This document shows, piece by piece, positions 32,054-42,297 of a stretch of DNA of 64,000 nt; the stretch's first letter is position 1, and every line of letters starts with the position of its first letter. Source of the stretch: Corallococcus macrosporus (GTDB lineage: Bacteria; Myxococcota; Myxococcia; Myxococcales; Myxococcaceae). The stretch covers positions 558,001 through 622,000 of the forward strand of contig NZ_JAFIMU010000002.1 of the NCBI RefSeq assembly GCF_017302985.1, in the 5' to 3' direction. The translations under genes and the position numbers were made by a program. Under the pieces are notes generated by a model, which had not been told where the DNA came from, searched no databases, and was given only the letters and a program-made list of their open reading frames with translations.

Positions 32054-32422
32054 TCAGGCCCCTGGGATTTCGCCCGGGGTGAAGACCAGGCGGTCGCCCT
32101 CCTGGGTGCCACTGGCCCCGAGGACGCCCGCGGGCAGCTCCAGCACGGAGCGGGCCTTGAAGTAGATGGACGAGGTGCGCCAGGGAGGCATGGCGGACAG
32201 TTGCTTGACGATGCGCCCTTCCGCGTCCAGGAAGGCGACGTCGATGGGGATGCGCATGAAGAAGGTGTGGATGGAGTTGCAGGGCTCGATGTGCATCCCG
32301 CCCCCCATGGGCAGCGAGGCGCGGCCCATGAGCCCCTGGAAGCGCTGGACGAAGGACTCGGCGCGCTCCGCGCGGTCCGCGAGCAGCCGCTGCCGTGTTT
32401 CGTTGGTCACCCTCCAGTGCAT
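32054..32422 (-). CDS. DUF192 family protein
   Basis: A 122-residue DUF192 protein with the conserved core FVQRFQGLMGRASLP, MHIEPCNSIHTFFMRIPIDV, and the ending VLELPAGVL. The family is small and of unknown biochemical function; many members are secreted, but this one lacks a signal peptide. Its ATG is only 17 nt from the divergent trmL ATG, so the two genes must share or overlap promoters. Confidence 0.88.
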   Translation of the reverse strand: MHWRVTNETRQRLLADRAERAESFVQRFQGLMGRASLPMGGGMHIEPCNSIHTFFMRIPIDVAFLDAEGRIVKQLSAMPPWRTSSIYFKARSVLELPAGVLGASGTQEGDRLVFTPGEIPGA

Positions 32423-32439
32423 GTCCGGTGTTCTATCCC

Positions 32440-32943
32440 ATGCTTGAGCCCCTGGCGTCCCCCCTGCACCTGGTCCTCGTGTCCCCTCAGATTCCGCCCA
32501 ACACCGGCAACGTGGCCCGGCTGTGCGCGGTGACGGGCTGCCGGCTCATCCTGGTGGAGCCGCTGGGGTTCTCCATCGACGACCGGAACCTGAAGCGGGC
32601 GGGGCTGGACTACTGGGACAAGGTCTTCCTGAAGCTCTACCCGACCTACGACGCCTACGTGGCGGAGTACCCCCAGGCGCGCCGGTGGCTGTTCTCCGCC
32701 CGGGCGGAGACGTCGCTGTACGCGGCGCGGTTCGAGGCGGGGGACCACCTGGTGTTCGGCTCGGAGGTGACGGGGCTGTTGCCGGAGGTGATGGAGGGGG
32801 GGACGGGGACGCCGGTGACCATCCCGATGCTGCCGGAGCGCCGCAGCTTGAATCTTTCGACGTCGGTGGGGATTGGCGCCTACGAGGCGCTGCGTCAGGT
32901 GCAGCTGGGCACAGCGGCCAGGCAGGCACCGCCGTCGAATTGA
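32440..32943 (+). CDS. trmL: tRNA (cytidine(34)-2'-O)-methyltransferase TrmL
   Basis: A 167-residue SPOUT-class methyltransferase of the TrmL/YibK family, which methylates the ribose of the wobble base of some leucine tRNAs. Family features are [20 protein letters not shown], the [12 protein letters not shown] knot region and [18 protein letters not shown] forming the SAM-binding trefoil. The length matches YibK (about 157). ATG 32440 is preferred. The stop codon overlaps a candidate promoter for the giant gene that follows. Confidence 0.93.
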
Positions 32944-32977: not shown

Positions 32978-35900
32978 ATGTCCGCCTCGCAGGTCGCCGA
33001 AGCGCTGTATGCCGCCCACAAGTCCCGAGCCACCGGCCGGCTGACGCTGCACGCCGGTGGACGCGAGTCCGCGCTGTGGCTGCGCGAGGGCGACCTCGTG
33101 GGGGCGCGGCTGGGCTTCGGGTACCAGACGCCGGCGCAGGCGCTCTTCCAGAACGGGCTGTTGGGCGTGGACGCCCTGGACGCGCTGTGGGCGCGGGGTG
33201 GGGCGGCGGCGCCGGACGAGGAGCTGCTGGAGGACAGCGGGCTGAAGCCCGCGGTGGTGCACGAGCAGCAGGTGCTGGCGCAGGTGCGCCGGCTGAGCGA
33301 GCTGGCGGAGCGCGCGGACTTCGAAGCGGAGGCGGTGGAGGCGGCGGGGGACTTCGCGCCCATCGCGGGCGTGCGCGTGGTGCGAGCCGCGCTGGAGCCC
33401 GCTCCGAGCGAGGCCGTGCCCGCGAGGGTCTACCGGTGTCCGGAGGTCGCGGCGTGCGAGCCGTGGCTGACGGATGCGTCGGAGCGCGGGCTGTTGGAGA
33501 CGCTGGGAGCGTTCCGGAGGCCGGAGGCGCTGACGGGGGCGCAGCAGGCGCTCTTGCGCGTGCTGGAGCGCGAGGGCCGCATCGAGGCCCTGTCGGTGGA
33601 GGAGTGGGAGGAGCGCGAGCGGCTGCGGCGCGAGGAGGAGCTGCGGCAGGCGGAGGAGGAGGCCTGGGAGATTGAAGAGGCGCGCCGTCGCGAGGAGGCG
33701 GAGCGGCGCGTGGAGGAGGAGCGGCTCGCGGAGCTGGCGCGGCTGGAGGCGGAGCGGCTGGCGGAGGAGGCGAGGCTCGCGGAAGAGGCGAGGCTGGCGG
33801 AGCTGGCGCGCATCGAGGCGGAGCGGCTGGCGGAAGAGGCCCGGCTCCGGGCGCTTGAAGAGGCACGGCTGGCGGAGGAGGCCCGGCTTCGCGCGGAGGA
33901 GGAGGCCAGGCTCGAAGCGGAGCGGCTGGCGGAGGAGGCGAGGCTCGCGGAGCTGGCGCGGCTGGAAGCGGAGCGGCTGGCGGAGGAGGCTCGCCTTCGC
34001 GCGGAAGAAGAGGCGAGGCTCGCGGAAGAGGCGAGGCTGGCGGAACTGGCGCGCATTGAGGCGGAACGGCTCGCTGAGGAGGCGAGGCTCGCGGAGTTGG
34101 CGCGCATTGAGGCCGAGCGTCTGGCTGAAGAGGCTCGGCTGGCGGAACTGGCTCGCCTTGAAGCGGAGCGTCTCGCAGAGGAGGCACGGCTCGCGGAGTT
34201 GGCGCGCATCGAAGCGGAGCGTCTCGCTGAGGAGGCTCGACTCGCGGAGCTTGCTCGCATTGAAGCGGAGCGATTGGCGGAAGAGGCGCGGCTGGCTGAG
34301 CTCGCACGCATCGAAGCGGAGCGTCTGGCTGAGGAGGCTCGTCTCGCCGAACTGGCGCGCATCGAAGCCGAGCGATTGGCGGAAGAGGCGCGGCTGGCTG
34401 AACTCGCACGCATTGAAGCCGAGCGTTTGGCGGAAGAGGCTCGGCTCGCGGAACTGGCACGCATTGAGGCGGAGCGGCTTGCTGAAGAGGCCCGTCTCGC
34501 GGAACTTGCGCGCCTTGAAGCCGAGCGTCTCGCTGAAGAGGCGCGGCTGGCCGAAGAGGCACGGCTTCGTGCTGAGGAAGAAGCCCGGCTCGCGGAAGAG
34601 GCGCGGCTGGCCGAAGAGGCACGGCTGGCCGAAGAGGCACGGCTGGCCGAAGAGGCACGGCTGGCCGAAGAGGCACGGCTTCGTGCTGAGGAAGAAGCCC
34701 GGCTCGCGGAAGAGGCTCGGCTAGCGGAGGAGGCGCGGCTTCGCGCCGAGGAAGAAGCCCGGCTGGCGGAAGAGGCTCGGCTTCGGGCGATCGAGGAAGC
34801 GCGCCTCGCGGAAGAGGCGCGGCTTCGTGCTGAGGAGGAGGCGCGTCTCGCGGAAGAGGCCCGCCTCGCGGAGGAGGCTCGACTCCGCGCGATTGAAGAG
34901 GCTCGCCTTGCTGAGGAAGCCCGCCTCGCGGAAGAGGCACGGCTTCGCGCGGAAGAGGAAGCGCGCCTGGCCGAAGAGGCGCGGCTTGCTGAAGAAGCCC
35001 GCCTCGCGGAAGAGGCTCGCTTGGCCGAGGAGGCTCGCCTCGCCGAAGAAGCTCGGCTGCGTGCGGAGGAAGAGGCTCGTCTCGCTGAAGAGGCTCGTCT
35101 CGCTGAAGAGGCTCGTCTCGCTGAAGAGGCTCGTCTCGCTGAAGAGGCTCGTCTCGCTGAAGAGGCTCGTCTCGCCGAAGAGGCTCGTCTCGCTGAAGAG
35201 GCTCGTCTCGCCGAAGAGGCTCGTCTGCGCGCCGAAGAGGAAGCCAGGCTGGCTGAAGAGGCTCGGTTGGCTGAAGAGGCCCGGCTCGCCGAAGAGGCCC
35301 GCCTGGCCGAGGAAGCCGCTCGCATTGAAGCGGAGCGCCTTGCCGAAGAAGCTCGACAGGCGGAGGAAGCGCGCCTCGCGGAGGAGGCACGGCTGGCGGA
35401 ACTGGCGCGCCTTGAGGCAGAGCGTCTCGCAGAAGAGGCGAGGCTTGCGGAAGAGGCGCGCCTGGCGGAAGAGGCCCGCCTTCGCGCTGAGGAAGAGGCG
35501 CGTCTCGCCGAGGAGGCTCGGCTAAGGGCCATCGAAGAGGCGCGCCTGGCCGAAGAGGCTCGGCTTGCGGAAGAGGCGCGGCTTCAGGCGATCGAAGAGG
35601 CCCGACTCGCAGAAGAAGCCCGGCTTCGCGCGGAGGAGGAAGCGCGCCTGGCTGAAGAGGCCCGGCTCGCCGAAGAGGCTCGCCTCGCGGAAGAGGCTCG
35701 TCTCGCGGAGGAAGCTCGGCTCGCAGAAGAGGCCCGCCTCGCGGAAGAGGCTCGTCTCGCCGAGGAAGCTCGGCTGCGCGCTGAAGAAGAAGCGCGTCTC
35801 GCCGAAGAGGCTCGCCTCGCTGAGGAAGCCCGGCTGCGTGCTGAAGAAGAGGCACGGTTGGCCGAAGAAGCACGGTTGGCGGAAGAGGCTCGCCTTCGTG

Positions 35901-38900
35901 CAGAGGAAGAGGCCCGTTTGGCTGAGGAGGCTCGCCTCGCCGAAGAAGCACGCCTCGCCGAAGAGGCACGCCTCGCGGAAGAGGCCCGCCTCGCTGAAGA
36001 AGCCCGGGTCCGTGCCGAGGAAGAGGCACGTCTCGCGGAAGAGGCTCGCCTCGCGGAGGAGGCCCGCCTCCGCGCGATCGAGGAGGCTCGGCTCGCTGAG
36101 GAAGCGCGGCTGGCTGAAGAAGCTCGCCTCGCCGAGGAGGCACGTCTCGCGGAAGAGGCGCGTCTGGCCGAAGAGGCTCGCCTCGCCGAAGAAGCCCGCC
36201 TTCGCGCCGAGGAAGAGGCTCGCCTCGCCGAGGAGGCTCGGCTCGCGGAAGTCGCGCGACTGGCTGAAGAGGCCCGGCTCGCGGAAGAGGCTCGGCTGCG
36301 CGCGGAGAAAGAGGCGCGGCTCGCGGAAGAAGCTCGACTGGCTGAAGAGGCTCGCCTTCGGGCTGAGGAAGAGGCGCGTCTTGCTGAGGAGGCTCGACTC
36401 GCCGAAGCAGAACGTCTCCGCGCGCTTGAGGAAGCACGGCTGGCCGAGGAGGCCCGGCTCGCGGAAGAGGCTCGCCTCGCCGAGGAAGCCCGGCTTCGTG
36501 CTGAAGGGGAGGCTCGCCTCGCCGAAGAAGCACGGCTGGCAGAGGAGGCGCGGCTTCGTGCTGAGGAAGAGGCGCGTCTCGCTGAGGAGGCCCGGCTCCG
36601 TGCGGAAGAGGAGGCTCGCCTCGCCGAAGAAGCACGTCTGGCCGAAGAAGCTCGCCTTCGCGCGGAGGAAGAAGCTCGCCTCGCGGAAGAGGCTCGTCTT
36701 GCTGAAGAGGCTCGCCTGGCTGAGGAGGCACGTCTCGCCGAAGAGGCGCGCCTGGCTGAGGAGGCTCGCCTCGCAGAAGAGGCGCGGCTTCGTGCAGAAG
36801 AGGAGGCCCGGCTGGCGGAAGAGGCTCGCCTTCGTGCTGAGGAGGAGGCTCGAGGAGCCGAAGCCGCTCGGCTCGCGGAAGAAGCACGGCTGGCCGAGGA
36901 GGCCCGGCTCGCGGAAGAGGCTCGTCTCGCGGAAGAGGCTCGTCTCGCGGAAGAGGCTCGTCTCGCTGAGGAAGCCCGGCTGCGTGCTGAAGAAGAGGCA
37001 CGGCTGGCGGAAGAGGCCCGCCTTCGTGCAGAGGAAGAGGCCCGTTTGGCTGAGGAGGCCCGCCTCGCTGAAGAGGCTCGCCTCGCCGAAGAAGAGGCAC
37101 GCCTGGCCGAAGAGGCCCGCCTCGCGGAGGAGGTCCGTCTTCGCGCGATCGAGGAGGCTCGGCTCGCTGAGGAAGCACGGCTGGCTGAAGAAGCCCGACT
37201 GCGTGCGGAAGAAGAAGCTCGCCTCGCGGAAGAGGCGCGTCTGGCCGAAGAGGCTCGCCTCGCCGAAGAGGCCGCTCAAATCGAAGCCGCTCGTCTCGCG
37301 GAAGAGGCGCGTCTGGCCGAAGAGGCTCGCCTCGCCGAAGAGGCCGCTCGAATCGAAGCCGCTCGTCTCGCGGAAGAGGCGCGTCTGGCCGAAGAGGCCC
37401 GGCTGGCGGAAGCTGCACGACTCGCGGAAGAGGCTCGACTCGCGGAAGAAGCCCGTCAGGCCGAACTCCTCCTCGTCGCGGAACAGGCCCGTGCCGCCGA
37501 AGCCGCTCGCATCGCGGAGGAGGCCCGCGCCGCCGAGGCGCAGCGCCTTTCCGAACAGGGCAAGCCCGCCCATCCGCCCTCACTCCCCCGGCGCAACCGC
37601 CCGGCCGCGCCCCCCGCGCCGCCTCCGGTCCTCGTGCCCGTCGCCGCGGCCCCGGTGGAGCCTGAACCGCTGTCGCTCGGGCCCGAGGACATCATCCTCA
37701 CCGCGGAGCCGGAACCCTCCGCCCCGTCGAACTGGGCGGACTCCATCCCCGCGTCCCCCCGCGACGCCCTGGAACTGCCCGTCAGCGACAACACCTCCGC
37801 CCTGACCGAGGCCCGCAAGCGCGCCCAGGCCGCCCAGCTCCAGGACATGGCCGAGGCCCTGCGCCGCTCGGCCTCCGTGCCCCTGGACCCCTGGCTCACC
37901 GAGGAGTCCTCCCGCTTCCCCGTCGCCCCGCCCCCGGAAGCCGACCTCCCCCTCCTGGAGGTCGAGCCGGAGAGCTGGGGCGACATCGTCCCCGCCGCGG
38001 CGCCCCTTCCCGACACCCGCGCTCCCGCCCCGGACGCCCCCGTCGTCCCCGCCCAGGCCGCCCCCCAGCCGGACCTCTGGGCCGTCCAGCCCCCCAAGTT
38101 CCCCGCGTCCGCCACACCGCCCGTGCGTCCCGCCCGCGCCACCGAGGACGACCTGTGGCGCATCGTCTCCTTCGACGAGTCGAACGACCCCGCCCAGAAC
38201 CTCACCGCCTCCTTCGAGGCCGCCCTCCAGCAGGTGGATGCCCACCTGGAAGCCCTCGTCCGCTCGGACGTCCGGTCGGTGGGGGACGCCAACGAATTCC
38301 TCGTCGAGGCCATCGTCGAGGCGACATTCGAGCCGCTGCCTTCTCCCCGCTCCACCGCGTTCCCCGGTGACAACGGAGGGGCTTCTGGCCAGACTGAGGA
38401 CGAGCTGTCCGGTGACCTGGACGACTGGGATTTTGACGAGGACGACGTGGCGGCCGAAGACCCCTCCAACCCCGACGAAGCCTCCAAGCTCCGGCGCCAG
38501 CGCCTCCTGCGCCGCGCCATGGAGAACATGGGCACGCTCGGCGCCCGCCCCGTTCCCCCCGCCGCCGCCGCGAGCACCCCGGCCACGCCCGAAGCCGCCG
38601 CGCCGCCACCCGCCGCACCACCAGAGCCCCCCAAGCCCGACGAGGGCCGGCTCGCGCAGCAGATTGAGCAGCGCTACGCCGACATCCAGACGAAGAAGGA
38701 CCACTTCGTCACACTGGGTGTCCCGCAGGATGCCTCGCGCGACCAGGTGAAGGCCGCCTTCCTGAGCCTCGCCAAGGTCTTCCACCCGGACCGGCTGCCC
38801 CCGTCGCTGCCGCACCTGGCGCCAAAAATCACGGCTGTCTTCGAGTCTATCCGCGAGGCCTACGAAGTCCTCCACGACGACACCCGCCGCAAGAACTACC

Positions 38901-39382
38901 AACTGGCCCAGCAGGGCGCGCAGGCCGCTCCCAAGCCCCCGGCCTCCACCGCCCGTCCCGGCAGCCCCGCCGCGGCCCGCGCGGACACCAACGCGGATGA
39001 CCTCTTCCGCATGGGCGAGGTGTTCTTCCGCAAGCGCGACTTCGTCGCCGCCAGCGAGCACTACGAGCGCGCCCACGCCCTGGACCCCAAGCCCCTGTAC
39101 CTCGCGGCGCGCGCCTGGGCCCTCTACATGGACCCCAGCCGCAAGGCCGACATGCCCCGCGCGAAACAGTGGATGGCGGATGCGGTGCGCGCCGACCCGA
39201 ACTGTGATCGCGCCCACTACCAGCTGGGCGTCATCGCCCGCGTGGAAGGGGACATGGACCGCGCGGAGCGGCACTTCCGCGAAGCGGTGCGCGCGAACCC
39301 GAAGCACCTGGAGGCGAACCAGGAGCTGCGGCTCATCGACATGCGCAAGAAGAACCCACCCAAGAAGGGTCTCTTCCGCTGA
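32978..39382 (+). CDS. giant PATAN-helical repeat-J domain-TPR protein
   Basis: A 2134-residue protein with no overall counterpart I recognise. Residues 1-~75 resemble a PATAN/DUF4388 module ([20 protein letters not shown]), with helical sequence to ~229. Residues ~230-1527 are an almost uninterrupted Ala/Glu/Arg/Leu repeat (see repeat entry). Residues ~1530-1890 are Pro/acidic and disordered, containing [14 protein letters not shown] and DDWDFDEDD patches. A J domain starts at residue 1908 with the HPD motif at 1936-1938. A TPR-like tail ([34 protein letters not shown]) ends at KKGLFR. The J domain predicts Hsp70 recruitment. No signal peptide is seen, so it is presumably cytoplasmic. ATG 32978 is chosen for the start of the PATAN similarity. 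Its neighbour at 39.5 kb shares PATAN and TPR modules. Confidence 0.85.
34613..34684 (+). repeat. short 18-nt tandem array
   Basis: Identical 18-nt units (GAAGAGGCACGGCTGGCC) begin at 34613, 34631 and 34649, and a fourth, diverging unit begins at 34667. The array is flanked by two copies of a longer unit reading GCACGGCTTCGTGCTGAGG. This suggests recent duplication inside the larger coding repeat. Confidence 0.8.
35075..35218 (+). repeat. 18-nt minisatellite, eight near-identical copies
   Basis: Eight consecutive copies of GCTCGTCTCGCTGAAGAG lie at 35075-35218, differing only by synonymous CTG/CCG changes. They encode eight ARLAEE units. Codon choice here (GCT, CGT) is less GC-rich than the surrounding genome. 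Confidence 0.9.
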
Positions 39383-39525: not shown

Positions 39526-42297
39526 GTGGCCAAGCAGCACCTGCTCCTCGTCGACGGTGACGCGAAGAGTCTGCGCGTGATGGAGGTCAGCCTGAAGAAG
39601 GCGGGCTTCTCCGTCACGACTGCGATCCACGGCAAGGATGCGCTGGAGAAGGTCCAGATCAGCCCGCCGGACCTCGTGCTCGCGGACACCAAGATGCCGG
39701 AGATGGACGGCTTCGAGCTCTGCAAGCAGCTCAAGTCCGACGAGCGCTTCAAGTTCATCCCCTTCGTCTTCCTGACGAACCAGAAGTCGGTCGAGTTCAA
39801 GGTGCGCGGCCTGGAACTCGGGGGCGACGACTACCTGACGAAGCCCATCTACATCAAAGAGATCGTCACCCGCGTGAAGATGATCCTTCAGAAGGCCGAG
39901 AAGGAACGCATCGAGAAGCGCGAGACGACCAAGGGTGGCTTCGCGGGAAGCCTCGCCGACATGGGCGTCGTGGACCTGGTCCAGACCTTCGAGATCGGCC
40001 GCAAGACGGGCGTCATCTCCATCCAGGGCGAGCGCACCGGCGTCGTCTACTTCAAGGAAGGCCGCGTCATCGACGCGGAGCTGGGCCGGCTCAAGGGCGA
40101 GAACGCCTTCTACCGCCTGCTCAACACGTTCGAAGGCCAGTTCGACGTGCAGTTCACCACGTTGGACCGCACCGAGCGCATCGAGGTCTCCACGCAGGGC
40201 CTGCTCATGGAAGGCATGCGCCGGCTGGACGAGTGGGGCCGGATGCTCGAGCAGCTCCCGCCGCTGGAGACGGTCTTCGAGATCGACTACCACCAGTTGG
40301 CGGACCGCCTGTCGGAGATCCCCGACGAGGTGAACGGCCTGTTGCGCCTGTTCGACGGCAAGCGCGCGCTGTCGCGCGTGGTGGAGGACTCGGACTTCGA
40401 GGACCTGGCCGCGCTGGGCATCATCAGCAAGCTGTACTTCGAAGGGCTGATCCGCGAGCTGGGCAACGCGCCGCTGGAGCCCGTGCAGAGCAGCAAGCCG
40501 GGCATCGAGCAGTGGCTGAACACCGCGCCGCCCATCCCCGTGGACGTCGCGCCCGCGCAGGAGGCCGCGCCCGCGGAAGCGCCTGTCGCCGTGGAGCCGC
40601 CGCCCGTGGAAGCGGCGCCCGTGGCGGAGGCCGCGCCCATCGAGGAGGCCCCGCCCGCGCAGCCGGAGCCCGTGGAGGAGGTCACGCCGGCGGTGGCGGA
40701 GGTGGCGCCCGCGCAGGCCGCCGCGCAGCCCGCGCAGGTGATCATCTTCCCGCCGCGCTCACGCCCCGGCGACGGCGCGCCGCCTCCGTTCGGACAGGAG
40801 GGCGTGGAGCCCGTGGTTCCGCCGCTGTCGCAGGAGGGCTCGGCGTTCCTGGTGGAGCCGCCCCCGGCGCACCGCGCGGTGGATCACGCGCGGCGCAGCC
40901 TGCTGCTTGACTGGAACCGCGTGGACACGGAGGGGCTGAGCTCCTCCAGCACCTGGGGCCCGGGTTCGCCCTGGGGCGCCGCGTCCCGCGCGCCCGCGCC
41001 TTCGCCCAGCCCGTTCGCCGCCGCGCCCGTGGCGGCGCCGGTGGAGCCGCTGCCCTCGCGTCCGCCCATCTTCGGTGGCGCCGCCATCGCGCCCAGCCCG
41101 CTGGCGCCCGTGCCGCCGCCCACGCCGGCCCCGCCGTCGTCCGAGGTGACGCTGGTCAGCGGGACGGAGCCGCATCAGGACGAGCTGCCGGTGGAGGAGG
41201 CCGCGCCGCAGCAGCTCGCGCTGCCGCCGTACCCGGGCCACGGCATCGTGCCGCCCCAGGTGGCCCCGGTGGCGCTCAACGTCGAGTTCCCCGCGACGAC
41301 GCCCTTCGATTCGCAGCCGGCCCCCACCATGGAGCCGGTGGACACCGCCGCGCACGACGTGCCCGCGTCGGAGGCGTACTTCACGGAGCCCGAGCCCGCC
41401 GCGCCCGTGGCGAGCACTCCTGCGGCCCCCACGCCCGTCGCTGCTCCCGCTGCCGATTCCACGGCCTCCACGAAGCCCAGCGCGACGAAGCCCGCGCACG
41501 ACGAGGACGACGCGGCGCTGATCGCCGCGATGAAGCCCAAGCGCACGGGCCTCTACGTCGCGGGCGGTCTGCTCCTGGTCGCGGCCGTGGCCGCGGTGGT
41601 CATCTCCAAGGGCTCGGGCAGCGCTGAGACGCCCAAGCCCAGCGACCCCAAGGTGACGCAGCCCACGCAGCCCGTGGACGCGCGCAAGCCGCCGGAGACC
41701 ACGCCTCCGCCGGAAGTCACGCCTCCGCCCACGAAGACGGTGGACGCGCAGCCCGACGCGGGTGTCACCCCGCCGAAGACCGCCGTCACCCCCGCCCCCG
41801 AGGACGCGGGCACCGCGCCAGTGAAGACCGCCACGCCCGAGCCCGCCGCCGTCCCAGACGCGGGCGCCATCGCGGTCGCGCCCACGCCGCCTCCGGACGC
41901 GACGCCCGTGGCGCCGCCGAAGCTCACCTACGCGGACTTCATCAAGGACGGCCGCGCGGCCATGTCCCGCAAGAGCTTCAAGTCGGCCGTCGGCGCGTAC
42001 CGCAAGGCGCTCGCGCTGGACAACGCCTCCATCGAGGCGAAGACGGGCCTGGGCATCTCCCTGGCCAACAACAGCAGCACCAGCGAGGCCGGCTACCGCG
42101 AGGCGGCGAAGCTGCTCCAGGACGTGGTCAAGGCGGAGCCCAAGAACGCGAAGGCCTGGTTCTGGCTGGGCAGCTCGCTCCAGTTCTCCGGCGATCAAAC
42201 CCGAGCGGCCGAGGCCTATAAGAAGTATCTGTTCCTCGAACCGACGGGGAGCTCGGCGGAGGACGTGCGCGCACTGCTCAAGGGGATGGGCAGCTAG
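39526..42297 (+). CDS. receiver-PATAN(DUF4388)-TM-TPR response regulator
   Basis: A 923-residue protein with a complete N-terminal receiver domain (Asp10, Asp12, phosphoacceptor Asp54 in [13 protein letters not shown], Thr in FVFLTNQK, Lys in DDYLTKP). A canonical PATAN/DUF4388 domain follows at about 140-260 ([20 protein letters not shown] to [13 protein letters not shown]). After a helical region to ~330 comes a Pro/Ala/Val/Glu-rich linker to ~670. A single transmembrane helix (~675-695, [19 protein letters not shown]), a second Pro/Thr-rich linker and C-terminal TPRs (~799-923) complete it. The TM places the TPR end probably in the periplasm. No DNA-binding domain is present. The start is GTG 39526. 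No cognate kinase is adjacent. Confidence 0.88.

What the first reader, a model, noticed from the sequence alone, without database searches (positions are those of the whole stretch)
32978..39382. 2134-residue PATAN / giant helical repeat / J-domain / TPR protein
Seen: one continuous frame with a PATAN-like head, ~1300 residues of Ala-Arg-Leu-Glu repeat, an acidic/Pro linker, a J domain with intact HPD (1936-1938) and a TPR-like tail. Known: J domains recruit and stimulate Hsp70; PATAN domains occur in myxobacterial signalling proteins. Inference: a cytoplasmic spacer or scaffold that places an Hsp70-recruiting end up to ~190 nm (1.5 angstrom per residue) from a signalling head, perhaps at a cell pole or a motility or secretion machine. 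I know no described protein with this domain order.
Basis: partly seen in the sequence, partly recalled or inferred. Interest (0 to 1): 0.85.

Follow-up and report, generated by a model that had tools for sequence, protein, structure and literature searches.

The report
Hsp70 co-chaperone on giant helical tether
A predator bacterium (Corallococcus) and its relatives carry a protein that joins a signalling-type docking head to an Hsp70-recruiting tail through a remarkably long alpha-helical spacer (about 1,300 residues, 190 nm if straight), a striking and conserved design whose job is not yet known.

Summary
In detail: window 32978-39382 (+) is one intact 2134-residue frame with a divergent PATAN head, a ~1,300-residue Ala/Glu/Arg/Leu helical array, an acidic/Pro linker, a J domain with HPD at 1936-1938 and a TPR tail. 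It is no assembly artefact: orthologues lie in the same gene neighbourhood across the family, with the same layout in 29 complete sequences (arrays 194-1,338 residues). More distant families have short orthologues (~560-600 aa) with no spacer, and one has a heptad coiled coil there instead. The array lacks a hydrophobic stripe and is rich in i+3/i+4 Glu-Arg pairs, so on paper it behaves like a single alpha-helix, though less charged and more Ala/Leu-rich than described ones. Its DNA turns over very fast while frame and helix character are kept; length drifts like a random walk, so it is a tether rather than a precise ruler. PATAN followed by J is not unique: three more such proteins occur in this genome. 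Best reading: a soluble J-domain co-chaperone tethered by its PATAN head, possibly to the neighbouring REC-PATAN-membrane-TPR protein, recruiting Hsp70 at a distance. A type IV pilus link is attractive by analogy but not supported by gene presence/absence.

The parts
32978..39382 (+). Whole gene: PATAN / giant helical array / linker / J / TPR, 2134 aa
   Evidence: orthologues
32978..33667 (+). Divergent PATAN (DUF4388) head plus helical exit, aa 1-230
   Evidence: PF14332 25.5 bits; short orthologues 36-51 bits; AF2 mean pLDDT 88
33698..37537 (+). Ala-Glu-Arg-Leu helical array, aa 241-1520 (mostly ARLAEE hexads, ARLRAEEE octads, 17-mers), SAH-like, net charge -175, no Pro, 2 Gly
37577..38491 (+). 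Acidic / Pro / Ala linker, probably disordered, with conserved Trp-acidic short motifs ([38 protein letters not shown])
   Evidence: alignment
38492..38533 (+). Conserved helix motif [14 protein letters not shown], kept in spacer-less orthologues
   Evidence: invariant columns; helix
38699..38899 (+). J domain, HPD at 38783-38791
   Evidence: 50.8 bits; HPD invariant in 16 aligned orthologues
38972..39331 (+). TPR tail
   Evidence: TPR_2 47.5 bits; helical hairpins at pLDDT >90
39526..42297 (+). Conserved neighbour: REC-PATAN-(TM ~675-695)-TPR protein, possible partner
   Evidence: Response_reg 82.7 bits, DUF4388 74.4 bits; TM; synteny
32395..32943 (+). Upstream SpoU-family RNA methyltransferase gene (syntenic marker)
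   Evidence: synteny

Best explanation
A soluble, tethered J-domain co-chaperone. The PATAN head docks on a specific partner (candidate: the membrane-anchored REC-PATAN-TPR protein encoded next door). A long, flexible, mostly single-helix spacer plus a disordered linker lets the J-TPR end sample a volume tens of nanometres away, where TPR and/or Trp-acidic motifs hold clients and the J domain delivers them to one of the cell's many Hsp70s. The spacer sets reach and excluded volume, not an exact distance. Shown here: domains, intact frame, orthology, predicted helix character, lack of hydrophobic stripe, spacer gain and turnover. Inferred: docking partner, Hsp70 stimulation, client, cellular site.
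For: HPD and J domain intact and invariant. PATAN homology. Same layout and synteny throughout the family and short versions at the same locus beyond it. Array: E>R i+3 200 vs 77 expected, R>E i+4 207 vs 77, E-E i+3 0 vs 132; hydrophobic power at 3.5-3.75 below shuffled, whereas a paralogue's coiled coil peaks at 3.5. Same signature in the arrays of other genera although the repeat units differ. Another family uses a heptad coiled coil at the same place, as expected if a long helix, not a sequence, is wanted. No TM segment in the giant. About 14 near-full-length Hsp70s in the genome.
Against: No direct evidence of Hsp70 binding, location or phenotype. The gene is not beside an Hsp70 gene, unlike several other J genes of this genome. 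Composition differs from described SAHs (51% charged and acidic here, ~76% and balanced in myosin SAHs, PMC5378345); Ala-rich and Arg-rich designed helices tended to oligomerise (PMC5347031). Length drift gives no sign of selection on length.
Confidence: 0.5

Rival explanations
1. It is the J-domain arm of an Hsp70 system that regulates the type IV pilus extension motor and polysaccharide export, fusing in one chain what cyanobacteria keep apart: PATAN regulators that bind PilB and a TPR-containing DnaJ3 that works with DnaK1 on PilB.
For: Literature: PATAN regulators bind PilB1; DnaK1 with a TPR-containing DnaJ homologue and GrpE interacts with PilB (PMC12288463); DnaK1/DnaJ3 localise to poles and are needed for motility polysaccharide (PMC9239167), a paper that cites a DnaK homologue needed for M. 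xanthus social motility. Two PATAN proteins of M. xanthus co-occur with the pilus regulator SgmX (PMC11580455); I could not tell whether either is this one.
Against: Presence/absence does not track PilB: G080 keeps the gene without a match over the PilB cut-off, G111 and G112 have PilB but no close relative of the gene. These are drafts of 88-99% completeness.
Confidence: 0.17
2. The array is not monomeric: Ala/Leu-rich helices pair or bundle, making a fibrous cytoplasmic scaffold with many J-TPR ends.
For: 31% Ala, 16% Leu and almost no Lys; designed helices richer in Ala or Arg oligomerised (PMC5347031). The first ~370 residues of the array show some periodicity near 3.4.
Against: Leu/Ile/Val power at 3.6-3.67 is well below shuffled in nearly all family members tested and none shows the 3.5 peak of the coiled-coil control, apart from 1.8 in the first ~370 residues of the window array; net charge of -175.
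Confidence: 0.2
3. The array is largely a passive by-product: a short helical linker that expands by replication slippage and is tolerated because in-frame changes leave a soluble helix.
For: Very fast turnover, indels in unit multiples (6, 7, 8, 12) and length behaving as a random walk, mean z squared 0.86.
Against: Hundreds of residues in nearly every genus of the family, no array of this kind found elsewhere in the genome, strict helix character, frame kept in 29 complete sequences.
Confidence: 0.2
4. Assembly or gene-prediction artefact joining separate genes.
For: One draft (L044/L068) has the J domain out of frame with the head; short-read drafts often break inside the array.
Against: Several single-contig genomes carry one continuous frame.
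Confidence: 0.02

Closest known systems
Cyanobacterial DnaJ3 (TPR-containing DnaJ homologue) of the DnaK1 pilus system
   Same: J plus TPR co-chaperone; specialised Hsp70 system
   Different: No PATAN head or giant helix reported in the papers read; membership not tested by sequence here
PATAN (DUF4388) response regulators such as PixG and PixE
   Same: PATAN domain, there a docking module for PilB
   Different: No receiver domain here; J-TPR output instead; head strongly diverged
Single alpha-helix (SAH, ER/K) domains of myosins, caldesmon
   Same: i+3/i+4 Glu-Arg ion pairs, no hydrophobic seam
   Different: Only ~51% charged, acidic, Ala/Leu-rich; about six times longer than the usual 40-200 residues (PMC5347031)
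Paralogues in the same genome: GYF-like-PATAN-J-TPR (L072), REC-PATAN-J-TPR (L075), REC-coiled coil-PATAN-J (L069)
   Same: PATAN followed by a J domain, two of three with a TPR-like tail
   Different: No AERL array; L069 has a heptad coiled coil and HPL in place of HPD
TopJ of Mycoplasma pneumoniae (NCBIfam hit to its J domain only)
   Same: J-domain protein with acidic/Pro region; its role at a polar motility organelle is recalled from memory, not tested
   Different: Different order, no PATAN, no TPR that I know of; model score far below its cut-off

Membership tests
J-domain proteins (PF00226) | J domain over the curated cut-off with HPD | tested here: met
   50.8 bits vs 27.8; HPD 1936-1938
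J-domain proteins (PF00226) | Stimulates Hsp70 ATPase | not testable with these tools
   needs biochemistry
Classical DnaJ (TIGR02349) | Full DnaJ architecture (G/F, zinc finger, CTD) | tested here: not met
   49.6 bits vs 377 cut-off; J part only
PATAN / DUF4388 (PF14332) | Score over gathering cut-off of 25 bits | tested here: inconclusive
   25.5 bits in the six-frame search, 14.4 in hmmscan; syntenic short orthologues 36-51 bits
TPR | TPR models over cut-off | tested here: met
   TPR_2 47.5, TPR_1 44 bits
Single alpha-helix domain | i+3/i+4 ion-pair networks | tested here: met
Single alpha-helix domain | No hydrophobic seam at 3.5-3.67 | tested here: met
   LIVM power 0.89 at 3.5 and 0.36-0.37 at 3.6-3.67 of shuffled for the whole array; the first ~370 residues reach 1.8 at 3.5
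Single alpha-helix domain | High (~76%), balanced charge, few hydrophobics (9.6%) | tested here: not met
   E+R about 51%, net -175, Leu/Ile/Val about 18% (benchmark PMC5378345)
Single alpha-helix domain | Monomeric in solution | not testable with these tools
   needs CD and ultracentrifugation
Two-stranded coiled coil | Heptad periodicity 3.5 | tested here: not met
   window array 0.89 of shuffled at 3.5; control paralogue 2.89
T4P-linked Hsp70 system | Co-occurrence with PilB | tested here: not met
   mismatches both ways

The most novel reading that the evidence does not exclude
A bacterial Hsp70 co-chaperone whose reach is set by a natural single alpha-helix several times longer than those described, and in which a long spacer between the same two ends has been built from two unlike helix types (single-helix hexads in one family, heptad coiled coil in another), that is, chaperone action at a distance as a selected trait.
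Probability: 0.3. Interest if true: 0.8.

Novelty: new variant of a known kind. Interest (0 to 1): 0.62.

Why it matters
If the array is a monomeric helix it would be a natural single alpha-helix several times longer than those described, in a bacterium, coupled to Hsp70. Natural length variants from 0 to ~1,340 residues at one locus make spacer function directly testable. The array is also a clean natural case of protein-level conservation under extreme DNA turnover with flattened codon use.

Tried and rejected
Precise ruler: rejected, array length within genera behaves as an unconstrained walk. Canonical coiled coil: rejected by periodicity with a positive control. Codon diversification that makes neighbouring units differ: not supported, adjacent units are more alike than after synonymous shuffling. 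PDB fold match for the head: none at E<=0.001; sequence search gave only MshE at E 0.39. Literature on this protein: nothing found for DUF4388+DnaJ, M. xanthus J+TPR+DnaK, or M. xanthus MXAN+DnaJ+coiled-coil; only openly licensed papers were searched. Strict T4P co-occurrence: not met. Within-array dN/dS was not used: protein alignment of tandem units does not give positional homology, so a codon-level alignment was used instead.

Full report
OBSERVATION. Window 32978-39382 (+) is one open frame of 2134 residues with the layout described: head, array, acidic/Pro linker, J domain with HPD at 1936-1938, TPR tail. Pfam gives DnaJ 50.8 bits and TPR_2 47.5 bits, both over cut-off. The head is a diverged PATAN: 25.5 bits for PF14332 in the six-frame search (cut-off 25), only 14.4 in hmmscan, but the spacer-less orthologues at the same locus score 36-51 bits. 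AlphaFold2 gives a confident alpha/beta head (mean pLDDT 88) with no close PDB match.

ORTHOLOGY. The matching named records are Corallococcus, Myxococcus and Hyalangium, so the window is Corallococcus-like. Head homologues were found in 41 of 59 relatives and a J-TPR match at E <= 1e-25 in 95 of 96 genomes of the family (in a few, such as G111 and G112, only a weak match, probably a paralogue). The neighbourhood nucleotidyltransferase - PP2C(-) - SpoU methyltransferase - this gene - REC-PATAN-TPR - RsmA-like gene is kept in the family, and most of it in other families of the order. One draft (L044/L068) has the J domain out of frame.

SPACER HISTORY. In the family the array is usually hundreds of residues (194-1,338 among complete sequences; G080 has only a short helix of about 60). 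Orthologues in other families have none (L062-L065, L112, L113, L116). In family f3, L107 has at least 860 residues of heptad-periodic coiled coil there, with ordinary codon use; its head lies on another contig (L061, beside the methyltransferase gene), so that gene is assembled from two pieces by inference. L108 and L109 have other helical spacers. Whether these are separate gains or one gain followed by replacement of sequence is not resolved. The motif [14 protein letters not shown] before the J domain is kept even without a spacer.

WHAT THE ARRAY IS. Residues 241-1520 hold mostly E, A, R and L, no Pro and two Gly, net charge -175. Glu and Arg sit at i+3 (both orders) and R>E i+4 about 2.4-2.7 times more often than in shuffles; E>R i+4 is not enriched; E-E at i+3 never occurs. 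Leu/Ile/Val power over the whole array is 0.89 of shuffled at 3.5 and 0.36-0.39 at 3.6-3.75, while the paralogue L069 used as control peaks at 3.5 (2.89). The first ~370 residues, built of 17-mers, are an exception with 1.8 at 3.5 and 2.9 at 3.4. The same ion-pair signature holds in arrays of other genera with different units, though all share a hexad core, so these are not independent confirmations. It therefore works on paper like a single alpha-helix, but charge content and balance differ from described ones, and Ala- or Arg-rich designs can oligomerise (PMC5347031, PMC5378345). Contour length is 192 nm, rms reach about 73 nm at a persistence length of 15 nm.

EVOLUTION. Between Corallococcus species, codons outside the array are 82-92% identical with 1-3 gaps, inside 57-64% with 32-45 gaps, mostly unit-sized. 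Chance codon match within the array is 36%. Length change fits an unconstrained walk (mean z squared 0.86 over ten pairs). Third-position GC is lower in the array (0.56-0.79) than in the rest of the same gene (0.79-0.93) in 29 of 29 orthologues, but not in the f3 coiled coil (0.88 vs 0.86). This goes with near-perfect tandem repetition; the cause (selection against slippage, relaxed codon selection or another process) is open, and neighbouring units are not made to differ.

CONTEXT. The genome has 15 J-domain places, 17 PATAN places and about 14 near-full-length Hsp70s. PATAN followed by J occurs four times: here, L069, L072, L075. Several other J genes lie beside an Hsp70 gene; this one does not. 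The neighbour carries a phosphorylatable-looking receiver, a PATAN, one TM segment and TPRs; the giant has no TM segment.

MECHANISM. A tethered co-chaperone is the most likely reading; partner, Hsp70, client and site are inferred. The pilus idea rests on published analogy (PMC12288463, PMC9239167) and is weakened by presence/absence.

VERDICT. Real, conserved, unusual; a new variant of J-TPR and PATAN proteins rather than a new kind.

Noticed in passing
window 33698-37537 and 28 orthologues: Third-position GC inside the array is lower than in the rest of the same gene in 29 of 29 orthologues, with near-maximal synonymous codon diversity; not seen in the f3 coiled-coil orthologue.
   Followed up: partly
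L069, minus strand (G000:C7 ~731-738 kb): A second giant: 2082-residue frame with REC-like start, acidic region, ~940-residue heptad coiled coil, PATAN and a J domain with HPL in place of HPD.
   Followed up: partly
window 37577-38491: Recurrent Trp-acidic short motifs ([38 protein letters not shown]) conserved in the family; similar motifs in the acidic region of L069.
   Followed up: partly
window 39526-42297: Neighbour REC-PATAN-TM-TPR protein, about 99% identical in its N-terminal third between Corallococcus species and present beside most short orthologues too; likely functional partner.
   Followed up: partly
G000:C2:400601, C9:438545, C15:111096: Several Hsp70 genes lie beside J-domain genes (most with TPR), suggesting dedicated Hsp70-J pairs in an expanded chaperone network.
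   Followed up: no
L044 / L068: Corallococcus sp. AS-1-6 draft: head and J domain in different frames, real frameshift or assembly error in the array.
   Followed up: no
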